Source of the DNA: Planobispora longispora
GTDB taxonomy: Bacteria; Actinomycetota; Actinomycetes; Streptosporangiales; Streptosporangiaceae
Length of the DNA: 37,926 nucleotides
NCBI RefSeq assembly: GCF_016863135.1
Contig: NZ_BOOH01000040.1
Coordinates: forward strand, 1-37,926
Reading direction: 5' to 3'
The translations under genes were made by a program, and so were the position numbers. Below the pieces are notes generated by a model. The model had not been told where the DNA came from. It did no database searches and saw nothing but the letters and a program-made list of their open reading frames with translations. Position 1 is the stretch's first letter. Each line of letters opens with the position of its first letter. This document shows, in pieces, positions 2,744-37,789 of the stretch.

Positions 2744-4004
2744 GCTGCGGGCGATCCGGGAGCTGTACGGCGAGCCGCAGGCCGACCCGTTCCTGGCGGC
2801 CAGGGTCCGGAGACGGCTGGAGGGCGGTTCCCGGCGACGGCGGAGGCTGCCGTGGACGGCGGCCCTGGCGGGTCTCGCCGCCGCCACCGCGGCGGCCACG
2901 GTGATCGTGGTCCCGGGGGTGACCGGGCTCGGGCGGGGGCCGGACACGGCCGCGCGGCCCCCGGGGGCGTCCGGGCTCCCCGGTCTGTCCGGGCAGACGG
3001 GGGCGCCCGGACAGACCGGGGAGCCCGGACAGACCGGGGAGCCGAGCCGGGGGGCCACGACGCTCGCCGGCCGGTCCATCCTGCTGGCGGCGGCGAGCAC
3101 GGCGGCCTCGGAGCCCGCGTCGGCGGGTTCCTACTGGCGGGTCAGGAAGCTCTACCGGCAGACGCATCCGGAGCGGCTCGGGCGGGGCGGGAACCGCTAC
3201 TGGGTGGTGGAGTCGCGACTCACCGAGCAGTGGGTCGCCAGGGACGGCAGGGTCTGGTCCGGTTCCCGGACGCTGGGGGTGTATCCGGCGAGCGCTGCCG
3301 ACGAGGACGCCTGGCGGCGTGACGGCTCCCCCGCCGAGTGGTCGAGCCAGGGACGCGTGCTGTCCACCTCACCCGAGAAGGGACAGATCAGGGAGGCGAC
3401 GGGCAAGGTGCCGTTCAGCATGGCCGGCCGGGAGATGACCATGGAGGAGATCCAGGGCCTCCCGGCCGATCCCGCCGCGCTGAAGGAGTGGGTGAGCGCG
3501 GCCGTACGGGAGGCAGGGGCGGCGGAGATCACGCTGACGGCCACCGCCGAGCCCACCGCCGAGCCCGCCGGCGGAACGGCGGAGAACACCCCCGGACCGA
3601 CCGGCGGAACGGCGGAGAACACTCCCGGCGGTTCCCCGGGACCGGACGACGGCCTCATCGCCGACGCGCTCAGCGGCCTGCTGTGGAGCAAGCCGTCACC
3701 GCCCGCCGTGCGGGCCGCCGCCTACCGGGCTCTCGCGGAGCTGCCGAACGTCCGCTATCTGGGAGAGTCCACGGACGAGCGGGGGCGCACGGGCGCCGTG
3801 TTCTCCTTCACGACGCCCTTCGCGGCGTCCTCCGCGACGCAGGACGCCGCCGTCCAGCGGACGTTGATCATCGATCCCGGCACCTCCCAGGTGCTCTCCT
3901 CGACCACCACCGGCCTGCCGGGGGTCAAGGGCGAGCAGGTCGAAGTGGTGCTCGAAGCGGGCTGGACGGACGACGAGCCGTCCCCTCCCGGGCCTCTCCG
4001 GTGA
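2736..4004 (+). CDS. CU044_5270 family membrane-anchored protein with collagen-like repeat
   Basis: A 422-residue protein of the actinobacterial CU044_5270 family, coupled to the sigma factor by an 8-base overlap. Residues 1-40 are a charged cytoplasmic head (MDELRAIRELYGEP start, then RRRR). One membrane segment follows (about 44-64, LAGLAAATAAATVIVV), and the rest should be outside the cell. Directly after the membrane helix is a short collagen-like Gly-X-Y run (GLPGLSGQTGAPGQTGEPG and a further repeat, DNA about 2973-3045). A second imperfect tandem element, GGTAENTPG, occurs twice near residues 280-300. The role is unknown; family members usually follow a two-domain sigma factor, and this could be its membrane-bound modulator. 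The DNA repeats could change length by slippage. Confidence 0.82.
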   Translation: MDELRAIRELYGEPQADPFLAARVRRRLEGGSRRRRRLPWTAALAGLAAATAAATVIVVPGVTGLGRGPDTAARPPGASGLPGLSGQTGAPGQTGEPGQTGEPSRGATTLAGRSILLAAASTAASEPASAGSYWRVRKLYRQTHPERLGRGGNRYWVVESRLTEQWVARDGRVWSGSRTLGVYPASAADEDAWRRDGSPAEWSSQGRVLSTSPEKGQIREATGKVPFSMAGREMTMEEIQGLPADPAALKEWVSAAVREAGAAEITLTATAEPTAEPAGGTAENTPGPTGGTAENTPGGSPGPDDGLIADALSGLLWSKPSPPAVRAAAYRALAELPNVRYLGESTDERGRTGAVFSFTTPFAASSATQDAAVQRTLIIDPGTSQVLSSTTTGLPGVKGEQVEVVLEAGWTDDEPSPPGPLR

Positions 4005-6891: not shown

Positions 6892-6922
6892 GTCACGGCA
6901 TGATCTAGTCTCATGCCGTGAC
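6892..6922 (+). promoter_or_regulatory. 12-bp inverted repeat spanning the promoter and start codon
   Basis: GTCACGGCATGA and its exact reverse complement TCATGCCGTGAC, separated by 7 bases (TCTAGTC). The second arm contains the GTG start codon (6918) of the next gene. The spacer plus first base of arm two gives TAGTCT (6906-6911), a good -10 placed 6-7 bases before GTG, so the mRNA is probably leaderless. A DNA operator (possibly autoregulatory) fits best; an RNA hairpin would require transcription from further upstream. Confidence 0.65.
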
Positions 6923-7649
6923 CAAGCTCAACCAGATCCTCGCCGTGGAGAAGGGCGTCAAATCCGACGTCCAGCGCAAGGTGACCGACGCGTATCACAC
7001 GATTCAGAAGACGCCCCTGCTGTCCGGAATCGCGCGGTCCTACCAGCCGATCGACGACGAGGGCGAGCAGCTCCCGCCCGAGTCGACCAGGGTCCAGGTC
7101 CAGGTCGAGGCCGTTCTCAAGGACGTCAGCACCACCCTGTCCCGGCTGTTCGACGTCACCGCGACGAAGGACTGGGCGAACTGCACGGCCAAGGCCGACG
7201 TCACGGTCGACGGGACCGTCCTGCTGTCCGGCGTGCCGGTGACGTACCTGCTGTTCCTGGAGAAGCAGCTCGTCGACCTGCACACGTTCGTCTCCAAGCT
7301 GCCGACGCTCGACCCGTCCGAGGCCTGGACGCTGGACGAGAACACCGACTCCTGGCGCACCGAGCCGGTCAAGACGACCCGCACCAAGAAGGTCCCCCGC
7401 AACCACGTGCTGGCCGAGGCGACCGACAAGCACCCCGCGCAGGTGCAGGTCTACAACGAAGACGTCGTCGTCGGCTACTGGACCAAGGTGTCGTTCTCGG
7501 GAGCGCTGCCGCAGCGGCGCGTCAACGAACTCCTGACCAGGGTGCAGAAGCTGCAGGACGCGGTGAAGTACGCCCGTGAGGAGGCCAACGGCATCGAGGT
7601 CACCGATCGCCGGATCGGTGAGGCCGTGTTCGGCTACCTGTTCGGGTAG
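6918..7649 (+). CDS. Conserved protein of unknown function next to tRNA-like RNAs
   Basis: A 243-residue soluble protein with no signal peptide or membrane segment. From memory it resembles an actinobacterial and phage family annotated as DUF7873; I cannot verify that. It has a helical N-terminus (LNQILAVEKGVKSDVQRKVTDAYH) and a central beta-rich part. A basic patch, KTTRTKKVPRNH, lies near residue 155, and a helical C-terminus (RRVNELLTRVQKLQDAVKYARE) ends in GEAVFGYLFG. No catalytic motif is evident. The GTG start lies in the second arm of a 12-bp inverted repeat and is probably leaderless. Its stop codon sits in the loop of a hairpin. Within 40 bases begin two tandem tRNA-like RNAs and then a shared terminator, with no obvious promoter between. 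RNA binding or handling is therefore a reasonable hypothesis, not a demonstrated function. Confidence 0.8.
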   Translation: MTKLNQILAVEKGVKSDVQRKVTDAYHTIQKTPLLSGIARSYQPIDDEGEQLPPESTRVQVQVEAVLKDVSTTLSRLFDVTATKDWANCTAKADVTVDGTVLLSGVPVTYLLFLEKQLVDLHTFVSKLPTLDPSEAWTLDENTDSWRTEPVKTTRTKKVPRNHVLAEATDKHPAQVQVYNEDVVVGYWTKVSFSGALPQRRVNELLTRVQKLQDAVKYAREEANGIEVTDRRIGEAVFGYLFG

Positions 7650-7660: not shown

Positions 7661-7680
7661 CCCGTCCCGGAGTGGACGGG
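7661..7680 (+). other. Hairpin in the 5' part of the RNA locus
   Basis: CCCGTCC (7661-7667) and GGACGGG (7674-7680) form a perfect 7-bp stem with loop CGGAGT. A second hairpin, TGCGC-GAGGA-GCGCA, follows at 7681-7695. Both lie between the protein gene and tRNA-like RNA 1 and may belong to its 5' flank. Confidence 0.45.
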
Positions 7681-7687
7681 TGCGCGA

Positions 7688-7817
7688 GGAGCGCAAGCTG
7701 AAACTGAAGGTCAGCCTGAACGACGGTGACAGCGGAGGTTCGACTCCTCCCCCGGGCACGACGGGCCCGGGTAGCCCAACTGGCAGAGGCAGCCGGTCAA
7801 ACTCAGACTCTCGCTCC
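7688..7817 (+). ncRNA. Circularly permuted tRNA-like RNA 1 (Y RNA-like or permuted tRNA)
   Basis: The tRNA parts are present in permuted order. Upstream is a T-arm, GGAGG-TTCGACT-CCTCC (7734-7750), followed directly by the 3' acceptor strand CCCGGGC (7751-7757). Seven bases later comes the 5' acceptor strand GCCCGGG (7765-7771), a perfect 7-bp match. It is followed by TA at positions 8-9 and a standard D-arm (GCCC-AACTGGCA-GAGGC, 7774-7790). The anticodon-stem equivalent pairs GCCG (7792-7795) with CGGT (7724-7727). Directly upstream of the latter is CTGAACG, resembling an anticodon loop with GAA. A helix GGAGCG/CGCTCC (7688-7693 with 7812-7817) and a hairpin GCTGA...TCAGC (7697-7715) may extend the base. 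Exact ends are unknown; a tRNA-mimicking Y RNA or a permuted tRNA gene are the alternatives. Confidence 0.65.
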
Positions 7818-7830
7818 AGAATCAGCATCG

Positions 7831-7990
7831 CCGTCGAGCGCCGGATCGACCGAGGTGGACTGTGATCGCTGAGATGCCGGTTCGAGTCCGGCTCGATGCT
7901 CTCATCATGCATCGGTAGTTCAATGGCAGAGCGCAGCGTCGTTACGACTGATCCACTCTCTTAAACGCCGCCGGCGCCACGATATGACGG
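7831..7990 (+). ncRNA. Circularly permuted tRNA-like RNA 2 (Y RNA-like or permuted tRNA-His-like)
   Basis: The better-preserved copy. In order: 3' anticodon-stem strand CGCTG (7867-7871), 4-nt variable loop, T-arm GCCGG-TTCGAGT-CCGGC (7876-7892), 3' acceptor strand TCGATGC (7893-7899), and 9 spacer bases. Then come 5' acceptor strand GCATCGG (7909-7915, 7 pairs including one G-T), TA, D-arm GTTC-AATGGCA-GAGC (7918-7932), and 5' anticodon-stem strand CAGCG (7934-7938, 5 of 5 pairs). CTGTGAT (7860-7866), a perfect tRNA-His GUG loop, precedes CGCTG. Outside the tRNA core, further nested pairs occur: GAG-GTGGA with TCCAC-t-CTC (7852-7859/7952-7960), GCGCCGG with CCGGCGC (7838-7844/7971-7977) and CCGTC with GACGG (7831-7835/7986-7990). 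This gives a long terminal stem with a tRNA-like head, the layout of bacterial Y RNAs. A terminator follows. Confidence 0.72.
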
Positions 7991-7997
7991 TATCGAA

Positions 7998-8031
7998 GAC
8001 CCCCGGGGACACGGATAGGTTCCCGGGGGTC
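7998..8031 (+). terminator. Terminator of the protein/tRNA-like RNA locus
   Basis: 12-bp stem GACCCCCGGGGA / TTCCCGGGGGTC (one G-T pair), 10-nt loop, followed by gctccttctcc. It starts 8 bases after the outermost predicted helix of RNA 2, as expected for the 3' end of a non-coding transcript. Confidence 0.8.
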
Positions 8032-19142: not shown

Positions 19143-19216
19143 TGCGCCGCCAGGGACTCGAACCCCGGACCCGCTGATTAAGAGTCAGCTGCTCTAACCA
19201 ACTGAGCTAGCGGCGC
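19143..19216 (-). tRNA. tRNA-Lys (CTT)
   Basis: Minus-strand cloverleaf: acceptor GCGCCGC/GCGGCGC, D-arm TAGCTCAGTTGGTTAGAGCA, anticodon stem-loop CTGACTCTTAATCAG with anticodon CTT, T-arm CGGGGTTCGAGTCCCTG, discriminator A. CCA is not encoded. The mature sequence matches the copy at 37716-37789. Confidence 0.95.
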
Positions 19217-22709: not shown

Positions 22710-24062
22710 ATGAACATCGCGATGGTGTCCGAACACGCCAGTCCCCTCGCCACCATCGGCGGCGCCGACGCGGGCGGCCAGAACGTGCACGTCGCCGCGT
22801 TGTCCTGCGCGCTGGCCGCGCGGGGGAACACGGTGACCGTCTACACCCGCAGAGACTCCGCCGAGCAGGACACGGAGGTCGCCTTCGCCCCCGGCGTCAC
22901 CGTCGTCCACGTTCCCGCCGGTCCGCCGGAGAGCATCCCCAAGGACGACCTGCTCGCCTGGATGCCCGACTTCAGCCGGTGGATAGCCCGGCGCTGGGCG
23001 GCGTCCGCCCCCGACATCGCGCACAGCCACTTCTGGATGAGCGGCCTGGCCGCCCTGGCCGCCGCCCGGGCCACCGGGGTGCCCGTCGTCCACACCTTCC
23101 ACGCTCTCGGCACCGTCAAGCGGCGGCACCAGGGCAGCGCCGACACCAGCCCGCGCGAGCGCGTGGAGACGGAGACGGTCATCGCCTGGCAGGCGGACGC
23201 GGTGATCGCGACCTGCTCGGACGAGGTGGCCGAGCTGAACCGGCTGCGGGTCCCCCGGCGGGCCACCCACGTCGTCCCCTGCGGCGTGGACCTGGCCGCG
23301 TTCACTCCCGCGGGCCCGGCGCCGGACCTCGGACCCGGCCCGGTCCTGCTCTCCATCGGCCGGCCGGTCCCGCGTAAGGGCGTGGAGACCGTCGTCCGCG
23401 CGCTCCGCCGGGTGCCGGACGCCACGCTGGTGGTCGCGGGCGGCGAGCCCGGGGAACCGGAGACCGCCCGCCTGGCGCGGATCGCGGACGAGTGCGGCGT
23501 CGCCGGCCGGGTCCGGTTCATCGGGAGGGTGGAGCGCTCCGCGGTCCCCGCCCTGATGCGGGCGGCGACCGCGGTGATCAGCGTGCCGTGGTACGAGCCG
23601 TTCGGAATCGTGCCGCTGGAGGCCATGGCCTGCGGGGTGCCGGTGGTCGCCTCGGCGGTGGGAGGGCATCTGGACACCGTCGTCCCGGGGGTCACCGGCG
23701 TACTGGTCCCGCCGCGCCGGGAGGCCGTCCTGGCGGGCGCGCTACGCGGGCTGCTGGCGGACCCGCCGCTGCTGGCGGCCTACGGCGCCGCCGCGGTCGA
23801 GCGGGCCGCGTCCCGCTACAGCTGGGAGCGGGTGGCGGCGGAGACGTCGGCCGTCTACGCCGAGGTTCTCGCCAGCCGGAGCCGTACCGCGCGGATAACC
23901 GCGGCGGCGCGCCATCCGCGAGAGATGAGCCGCCCGCGCGAGACGAGCGGGCGCGCCCATCCGGCCGTCGCAGTCCGCTCGCCCGGCGAGGCCGGGTCCG
24001 CGGTCACTGTCCGGTCGCTCGATGAAGGCTCCGTGCCGCGGAGCGGTCGATCGCTGCCTTGA
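22710..24062 (+). CDS. Glycosyltransferase family 4 protein
   Basis: A 450-residue GT-B fold retaining glycosyltransferase. The N-terminal domain opens with MVSEHASPL and the acceptor-side glycine-rich loop GGADAGGQNVHVAAL. The C-terminal donor domain has SIGRPVPRKGVETVVRAL and the EX7E-type motif EPFGIVPLEAMACGVPVV. The start resembles MshA- and sucrose-synthase-like GT4 proteins, but the product is unknown. The last 60 residues are a low-complexity Arg/Ser/Pro tail with short internal repeats; its DNA overlaps the convergent DUF4235 gene by 59 bases. ATG 22710 is preferred over the in-frame TTG 22683 because homologues begin at MNIAMVSEH. A SigB-like promoter at 22620-22643 suggests stress-induced expression. 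Confidence 0.9.
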   Translation: MNIAMVSEHASPLATIGGADAGGQNVHVAALSCALAARGNTVTVYTRRDSAEQDTEVAFAPGVTVVHVPAGPPESIPKDDLLAWMPDFSRWIARRWAASAPDIAHSHFWMSGLAALAAARATGVPVVHTFHALGTVKRRHQGSADTSPRERVETETVIAWQADAVIATCSDEVAELNRLRVPRRATHVVPCGVDLAAFTPAGPAPDLGPGPVLLSIGRPVPRKGVETVVRALRRVPDATLVVAGGEPGEPETARLARIADECGVAGRVRFIGRVERSAVPALMRAATAVISVPWYEPFGIVPLEAMACGVPVVASAVGGHLDTVVPGVTGVLVPPRREAVLAGALRGLLADPPLLAAYGAAAVERAASRYSWERVAAETSAVYAEVLASRSRTARITAAARHPREMSRPRETSGRAHPAVAVRSPGEAGSAVTVRSLDEGSVPRSGRSLP

Positions 24063-37715: not shown

Positions 37716-37789
37716 TGCGCCGCCAGGGACTCGAACCCCGGACCCGCTGATTAAGAGTCAGCTGCTCTAACCAACTGAGCTAGCGGCGC
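37716..37789 (-). tRNA. tRNA-Lys (CTT), second copy
   Basis: Same mature sequence as the copy at 19143-19216: GCGCCGC acceptor, anticodon CTT in CTGACTCTTAATCAG, standard D- and T-arms, discriminator A, CCA not encoded. Flanks differ apart from the terminator hairpin. Confidence 0.95.

What the first reader, a model, noticed from the sequence alone, without database searches (positions are those of the whole stretch)
7831..7990. Permuted tRNA-like RNA with a near-complete tRNA core on a nested terminal stem
Seen directly: T-arm and 3' acceptor strand come first, 5' acceptor strand and D-arm second. Acceptor strands TCGATGC/GCATCGG pair 7 of 7 (one G-T), anticodon-stem strands CGCTG/CAGCG pair 5 of 5, and CTGTGAT is a perfect tRNA-His loop. 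U8, A14, the G18G19 pair and a possible A15-U48 pair are kept. Three more nested helices (8, 7 and 5 bp) flank the core in register, ending 8 bases before a terminator. Known: bacterial Y RNAs of the YrlA class mimic tRNA on top of a Ro60-binding stem; permuted tRNA genes are known from algae and some archaea. Inference: this is one of the two, or a new class that keeps an anticodon-like loop.
Basis: partly seen in the sequence, partly recalled or inferred. Interest (0 to 1): 0.92.

Follow-up and report, generated by a model that had tools for sequence, protein, structure and literature searches.

The report
Two-headed tRNA-mimic RNA beside DUF7873
Next to a conserved protein of unknown function, many soil bacteria and large phages carry an RNA that displays two rearranged imitations of transfer RNA, which looks like a relative of Y RNA working with a different protein partner.

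Summary
The permuted tRNA-like RNA is real, and it is half of something larger. Window 7697-7990 holds two tandem modules, each a long stem topped by a permuted tRNA head (T-arm, acceptor hairpin, D-arm), downstream of a DUF7873 gene. In module 2, 19 of 40 pairs change on both sides among 19 close relatives and 40 of 40 among 72 diverse copies. The RNA goes with DUF7873: strong full-length matches occur in 13 of 100 related genomes, the same 13 that have DUF7873. Heads lie downstream in 80 of 80 bacterial and 80 of 95 viral loci, against 2 of 175 upstream controls. Phages of actinobacteria, proteobacteria and cyanobacteria carry at least one head beside the gene. It resembles bacterial Y RNA (YrlA) but stays below Rfam's cut-off and has no Ro60 gene beside it; the genome keeps a separate Ro60 gene with its own Y-like RNA. 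Against independence, Ro60 genes are enriched in DUF7873 genomes. The 'His anticodon loop' is no closed loop and is absent from distant copies, so this is not a permuted tRNA gene. Best reading: a DUF7873 ribonucleoprotein that works like a Y RNP.

The parts
6918..7649 (+). DUF7873 gene (243 aa), proposed protein partner
   Evidence: PF25283, E 9.6e-120; AlphaFold2 mean pLDDT 93.1, pTM 0.67
7661..7695 (+). two small 5' hairpins (7661-7680 and 7681-7695)
   Evidence: consensus fold of 22 homologues; several compensated pairs in the first, the second mismatched in about a third of rows as aligned
7697..7826 (+). module 1: basal stem 7697-7719 / 7803-7826 with permuted tRNA-like head
   Evidence: A4: 36 pairs, 97.1% of cells paired, 12 pairs changed on both sides, 0 of 500 shuffles; R2 match 148.3 bits, a row the model was built from
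7734..7790 (+). head 1: T-arm 7734-7750, acceptor strands 7751-7757 and 7765-7771 (3' strand first), D-arm 7774-7790
   Evidence: YrlA partial match 21.7 bits; all 7 acceptor pairs changed on both sides in some row; model-free head finder
7831..7990 (+). module 2 (the finding): basal helices 7831-7835/7986-7990, 7838-7844/7971-7977, 7852-7859/7952-7960, upper helix 7867-7871/7934-7938
   Evidence: A3: 40 pairs, 19 changed on both sides; 72 diverse copies: 40 of 40 (alignment fitted to the model)
7876..7932 (+). head 2: T-arm 7876-7892, acceptor strands 7893-7899 and 7909-7915, D-arm 7918-7932
   Evidence: head helices 98.3-99.6% paired in 72 copies; model-free head finder
7845..7852 (+). 5' conserved internal-loop motif ATCGACCG, proposed protein site
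   Evidence: in 72 copies A 87%, T 93%, C 98%, G 69%, A 98%, C 61%, C 66%, G 76%
7948..7967 (+). 3' conserved segment CTGA ... CTTAAACG, proposed protein site with 7845-7852
   Evidence: T7949 98%; C7960 75%, T 97%, T 88%, A 91%, A 95%, A 88%, C 69%, G 92%
7998..8031 (+). 3' hairpin, 13-nt arms, loop with GGATA
   Evidence: inverted repeat, 92% complementary; similar hairpins in phage loci seen by eye only

Best explanation
A two-headed Y-RNA-like RNA that forms a ribonucleoprotein with DUF7873. Shown: two stem-and-permuted-head modules, compensatory changes throughout, close co-occurrence with DUF7873, and presence in phages of hosts from three bacterial phyla. Inferred: DUF7873 binds the conserved internal-loop motifs of the stems (ATCGACCG / CTGA...CTTAAACG), perhaps through its conserved basic beta-arm (RTKKVPR, residues 155-161). 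The heads, which keep T-loop, D-loop and acceptor features, engage enzymes that handle tRNA (PNPase, RNase P, TruB or Dus type), as the YrlA head does. The particle would then steer or block RNA processing or decay, in phages probably during infection. I put the RNA structure and the link to DUF7873 above 0.95, the binding of RNA by DUF7873 at about 0.75, and the tether role at about 0.4.
For: Covariation in both modules: MAFFT alignments; alignments fitted to the models. Co-occurrence 13 of 13 versus 0 of 87 in 100 related genomes for strong matches of 86-175 bits. Module-2 model matches over all 157 positions in 84 of 91 DUF7873 loci and over at least 130 positions in 65 of 75 viral loci. 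Model-free heads within 1.5 kb downstream in 160 of 175 loci versus 2 of 175 upstream. Place and strand vary: opposite strand in L019, upstream of the gene in L181, 1.8 kb away in L036, so it is not simply a 3' UTR. The stem is kept where head 1 is lost (L211, read; shortened module-1 matches in L060, L063, L076; L011, read), as expected if the stem binds the protein. Conserved basic arm: K or R at residues 155, 157, 158 and 161 in 67, 62, 67 and 61 of 67 sequences.
Against: No transcript, binding or mutant data. DUF7873 has no PDB fold match at E <= 0.001, so nothing independent marks it as RNA-binding. TROVE/Ro60 is enriched in DUF7873 genomes: 10 of 13 versus 20 of 87 (p 2.5e-4), within the family 10 of 13 versus 16 of 48 (p 0.0096), so Ro60 may take part in trans. 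No RNA was found in L144, L177, L179 and L021 (both models and the finder) or in L145 (module-2 model and finder). Module 1 folds otherwise than the consensus in the minimum-energy prediction of the one sequence.
Confidence: 0.72

Rival explanations
1. A true Y RNA bound by the host's Ro60 in trans, with DUF7873 as an accessory factor.
For: Head and general plan as in YrlA. TROVE is enriched in DUF7873 genomes, 10 of 13 versus 20 of 87. The window's genome has a TROVE gene. Rhizobium phage RHph_Y65 carries TROVE as well.
Against: 3 of 13 genomes with DUF7873 (G012, G030 and G050, the last with a broken gene) and 11 of 12 phage records have no TROVE match. Of the 29 module-2 matches that lie outside DUF7873 loci in the 100 genomes, none exceeds 45 bits, 23 are partial, and 21 lie within 1.4 kb of a TROVE match; DUF7873 loci give 86-175 bits. 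The stem sequences beside the own TROVE gene look different (by eye).
Confidence: 0.15
2. A decoy for tRNA-cutting or tRNA-binding host defence or toxins, used by phages among their own tRNA genes.
For: DUF7873 lies inside tRNA arrays in several phages; 32 of 60 viral loci have an ARAGORN tRNA outside the RNA in the DNA held (up to 2.5 kb each side). Heads keep tRNA core features. PMC7790460 (passages) proposes a competitive-inhibitor role for the YrlA head.
Against: No anticodon loop, so anticodon nucleases are unlikely targets. Only 6 of 58 bacterial loci have a tRNA outside the RNA in the DNA held; whether those copies lie in prophages was not tested. Head 1 is dispensable in some copies.
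Confidence: 0.2
3. A permuted tRNA gene whose halves are rejoined to a working tRNA.
For: Order of the halves and an almost full tRNA core. 38 of 72 head-2 copies encode NCCA right after the 3' acceptor strand and 24 of 53 head-1 copies do. CTGTGAT occurs in 9 of 19 close relatives (by eye).
Against: CTGTGAT occurs in none of the 71 other diverse copies, and part of it pairs elsewhere. The flanking stems are conserved. The window's own heads lack NCCA. No bacterial splicing route of this kind is known to me (recalled).
Confidence: 0.02
4. A cis-acting UTR structure that regulates DUF7873.
For: It usually lies directly downstream on the same strand.
Against: Opposite strand in L019, upstream in L181, 1.8 kb away in L036.
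Confidence: 0.05

Closest known systems
YrlA, bacterial Y RNA (Rfam RF02553)
   Same: Permuted T-arm, acceptor hairpin and D-arm on a long basal stem formed by the two ends.
   Different: Two modules in tandem; 32.4 and 21.7 bits against a gathering score of 69; neighbour gene DUF7873, not Ro60/TROVE; stem sequences look different.
Ro60 (Rsr)-Y RNA particle / RYPER
   Same: Proposed logic: protein on the stem, tRNA-like head for an effector (PMC8394870, passages).
   Different: DUF7873 has no TROVE match in Pfam and no PDB fold match at E <= 0.001; effector unknown.
Permuted (two-piece) tmRNA
   Same: 3' acceptor half first, NCCA often encoded; weak Rfam beta_tmRNA matches in three phage loci (24.5-25.3 bits, gathering 84).
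   Different: Two heads; scores far below the cut-off. A tag reading frame was not sought.
Permuted tRNA genes of algae and archaea (recalled)
   Same: Order of the tRNA halves.
   Different: No anticodon loop conserved in distant copies; embedded in conserved stems.

Membership tests
YrlA (RF02553) | score at or above the Rfam gathering cut-off | tested here: not met
   32.4 and 21.7 bits against 69; best among the DUF7873 loci scanned 40.6 bits, L018
YrlA (RF02553) | tRNA-like head with D-, T- and acceptor arms on a basal stem (PMC8394870, passages) | tested here: met
YrlA (RF02553) | RNA of 90-150 nt (PMC8394870, passages) with one head | tested here: inconclusive
   two heads in tandem over 294 nt (7697-7990); that they form one RNA is inferred, no transcript was seen
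YrlA (RF02553) | gene next to Ro60/rsr | tested here: not met
   the only TROVE match of the genome lies on another contig; 1 of 12 phage records has TROVE
YrlA (RF02553) | binding of Ro60 (Rsr) | not testable with these tools
   needs biochemistry
TROVE/Ro60 proteins | DUF7873 matches TROVE or its fold | tested here: not met
   only DUF7873 in Pfam; no PDB match at E <= 0.001
permuted tRNA gene | conserved anticodon loop in homologues | tested here: not met
   CTGTGAT in 9 of 19 close relatives (by eye) but in 1 of 72 diverse copies, the window itself
tRNA | called by ARAGORN or Rfam tRNA | tested here: not met
   no call at this locus

The most novel reading that the evidence does not exclude
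A second, Ro60-independent class of Y-type particle, spread by large phages across bacterial phyla: a protein of new fold with a two-headed tRNA mimic. RNase P and tRNA 3'-end enzymes cut it at both acceptor ends into a multi-piece RNA, and it takes over the host's tRNA-handling machinery.
Probability: 0.3. Interest if true: 0.93.

Novelty: new variant of a known kind. Interest (0 to 1): 0.84.

Why it matters
Y RNAs are known with one protein, Ro60 (recalled). An RNA of the same plan with two tRNA-like heads, tied to a protein without TROVE and carried by phages of hosts from actinobacteria to Klebsiella, Vibrio and cyanobacteria, would suggest that the 'stem for a protein, tRNA head for an enzyme' design serves more than one protein. 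It gives DUF7873, a family with no known function, a testable partner, and it accounts for unannotated gaps and some doubtful tRNA calls in phage and Streptomyces DNA.

Tried and rejected
Single-sequence folding as proof: z -0.30 for 160 nt; z -2.65 and 0 of 100 shuffles for 382 nt, but that stretch includes the strong 3' hairpin. Other loose Rfam matches at the locus (plastid, miRNA, sucA, tRNA-Sec, HIF, sR23) were taken as chance or as echoes of the T-arm. The PADLOC hit of the Vibrio protein, E 0.023, was taken as chance. PHROGs and NCBIfam gave no family for the 4 and 3 proteins given. Foldseek viral gave one unnamed match at E 2.8e-4 with TM-score 0.20 and rmsd 38.9, which I do not trust; a PDB sequence search gave only E 0.05 and 0.06. 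The RNA-first pattern scan gave 10 contigs: 6 are true, each with DUF7873 close by (5 already held, 1 new, L211); 4 (L203, L204, L208, L212) are chance matches in one conserved, coding-like sequence without DUF7873 in the DNA held. Alanine identity (G3-U70): seen by eye in a few copies, absent here, dropped. In one search, 73 sources gave 72 rows at E <= 1e-9; L027 fell below and was dropped. A6 holds 9 module-2 rows among 62; the head-1 counts use the 53 others. Several loci are duplicates of one another, and some sources (L008 for one) are the same DNA as rows the model was built from; they were not removed from the counts. One search was given 98 of the loci held; hand-picked subsets of 73 and 53. 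On the second reading I mended the anticodon count, the wording on full-length matches and the prophage remark; the odds did not change.

Full report
Observation. The sequence at 7831-7990 contains, in this order, a T-arm, a 3' acceptor strand, a 9-nt loop, a 5' acceptor strand and a D-arm, inside nested stems. Rfam finds no family above its gathering score here. With loose settings the best match is YrlA, 7853-7961, 32.4 bits, E 3e-5, gathering score 69; a second YrlA-like piece lies at 7733-7790, 21.7 bits. ARAGORN calls no tRNA here. Folding the 160 nt alone is not better than shuffles (z -0.30).

Neighbour gene. The gene just upstream, 6918-7649, is DUF7873 (PF25283, E 9.6e-120). Its predicted structure is confident (mean pLDDT 93.1, pTM 0.67) and has no match in the PDB at E <= 0.001. 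PHROGs and NCBIfam have no family for it.

Homologues. tblastn found DUF7873 in 73 of 50,697 phage records, some of them double entries, with names in Vibrio, Gordonia, Rhizobium, Klebsiella, Serratia, Arthrobacter, Pseudanabaena, Rhodococcus and Microcoleus, and in 4 of 72,556 plasmid records. A capped scan of one genome per species kept the best 80 of at least 470 loci, all with actinobacterial genus names in their titles. A scan of viral contigs kept the best 80 of 317. Of 396 genomes drawn evenly from the window's phylum, 7 had the gene, the window's own included, so it is patchy; of 14 control genomes, Deinobacterium chartae has it. The closest named protein is from a Planotetraspora (90%).

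Anatomy. Twenty-two sequences (window and 21 close relatives) aligned downstream of DUF7873 give one consensus: two small 5' hairpins, module 1 (7697-7826), module 2 (7831-7990) and a 3' hairpin. MAFFT alignments of 19 sequences per module, with the structure taken from that consensus, give for module 2 40 pairs, 96.6% of cells paired, 19 pairs changed on both sides, 0 of 500 shuffles as high, and 37-56% paired when slid. Module 1 gives 36 pairs, 97.1%, 12 pairs changed on both sides, 0 of 500. Because the structure was derived from these same sequences, the percentage paired is flattered; the double changes are the stronger evidence. Alignments fitted to the models over diverse phage and bacterial copies give 40 of 40 pairs changed on both sides (72 sequences) and 35 of 36 (62 sequences); fitting leans towards the structure.

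How tight is the link. The module-2 model finds matches over all 157 positions in 84 of 91 DUF7873 loci (E <= 1e-5, whose 92nd source was the TROVE locus L001). It finds matches over at least 130 positions in 65 of 75 viral loci. Of the 7 misses, five (L023, L029, L031, L035, L037) show one or two heads by a model-free finder, L036 shows module 1 by the second model, and L021 shows nothing. The finder, run 1.5 kb downstream, finds at least one head in 80 of 80 bacterial loci (66 with two or more) and 80 of 95 viral loci (41 with two), and 1.5 kb upstream in 2 of 175; one of those two is L181, where the RNA really lies upstream. In the window it finds two heads on the plus strand and none on the minus strand. 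In 100 related genomes, the window's own included, strong matches (86-175 bits, all 157 positions) occur in 13, exactly the 13 with DUF7873, one of them broken (Fisher p 1.4e-16, not corrected for kinship).

Relation to Y RNA. One search lists 48 matches: the 13 strong ones, 6 weaker ones at the same loci, and 29 elsewhere. None of the 29 exceeds 45 bits, 23 are partial, 21 lie within 1.4 kb of a TROVE match, and 8 do not. The window's own genome has such a locus: a Ro60-type gene with Y-like heads upstream and stem sequences that look different. Results against full independence: TROVE is found in 10 of the 13 DUF7873 genomes and 20 of the 87 others (p 2.5e-4), and in 10 of 13 versus 16 of 48 within the family (p 0.0096). 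Of 12 phage records, only Rhizobium phage RHph_Y65 has TROVE; 2 of 12 have RtcB.

Anticodon claim. CTGTGAT recurs in 9 of 19 close relatives (by eye), but among 72 diverse copies it occurs only in the window's own, and TGA of it pairs in the RNAalifold consensus. What is conserved widely is elsewhere: the T-loop, U8, A14, G18G19 and A21 in the head, and ATCGACCG with CTGA...CTTAAACG in the stem. Head 2 is followed by NCCA in 38 of 72 copies, head 1 in 24 of 53; the window's own copies have TCTC and ACGA.

Mechanism. From PMC8394870 (passages read): YrlA's basal stem holds the Ro60 protein, its head mimics D-, T- and acceptor arms, is modified by DusA and TruB, and binds PNPase. By analogy I propose that DUF7873 holds the stems and the two heads engage tRNA-handling enzymes. 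That head 1 is replaced by a plain hairpin in some copies while the stem stays (L211; L060, L063, L076; L011) fits a protein site in the stem. An ARAGORN tRNA outside the RNA lies in the DNA held around 32 of 60 viral loci and 6 of 58 bacterial loci. Binding, processing and function are inferred.

Literature. Searches for YrlA, DUF7873, permuted tRNA with phage, Ro60 with phage and related terms listed no paper that by title or abstract start describes this RNA; DUF7873 is in no held paper. PMC7765460 (passages) cites earlier work that several phages have YrlA, and PMC7824862 (passages) notes TROVE proteins in jumbo phages, so Y RNAs in phages as such are known. Two main YrlA papers (PMC4201824, PMC10870794) were not held, so a mention there cannot be excluded.

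Noticed in passing
L001 1-2283 (window genome, contig 21): A Ro60/TROVE gene (about 694-2283) with two Y-like heads upstream by model (231-293, 483-597) and a possible third by eye near 370-440, separate from the DUF7873 locus.
   Followed up: partly
Streptomyces loci such as L061, L069, L075, L080 near 3259-3353: ARAGORN calls tRNA-Phe(gaa), tRNA-Leu or an odd tRNA over the 5' part of the RNA in 11 of 58 bacterial loci; probably false.
   Followed up: no
L035 3518-3597 (Klebsiella phage FBKp24): The deposited record annotates a tRNA-Sup-TTA that overlaps module 2 of this RNA; probably a misannotation.
   Followed up: no
L036 3441-3650 (Microcoleus phage): A HEARO RNA (129 bits) lies between DUF7873 and its RNA modules.
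   Followed up: no
L031 3420-3720 (Vibrio phage K479): An ordinary tRNA-Lys (3597-3669) sits between the one permuted head found and a 3' hairpin, where module 2 would be expected.
   Followed up: no
7998-8031 and phage loci: A hairpin with a GGATA-like loop follows the RNA in bacteria and phages (by eye) without a clear U-run; it may be part of the RNA, not only a terminator.
   Followed up: no
19143-19216 and 37716-37789, minus strand: Two tRNA-Lys(CTT) genes with the same 74-nt sequence in one window.
   Followed up: no
23747-23826, plus strand: ARAGORN calls a tRNA-Arg(acg) that Rfam does not support.
   Followed up: no
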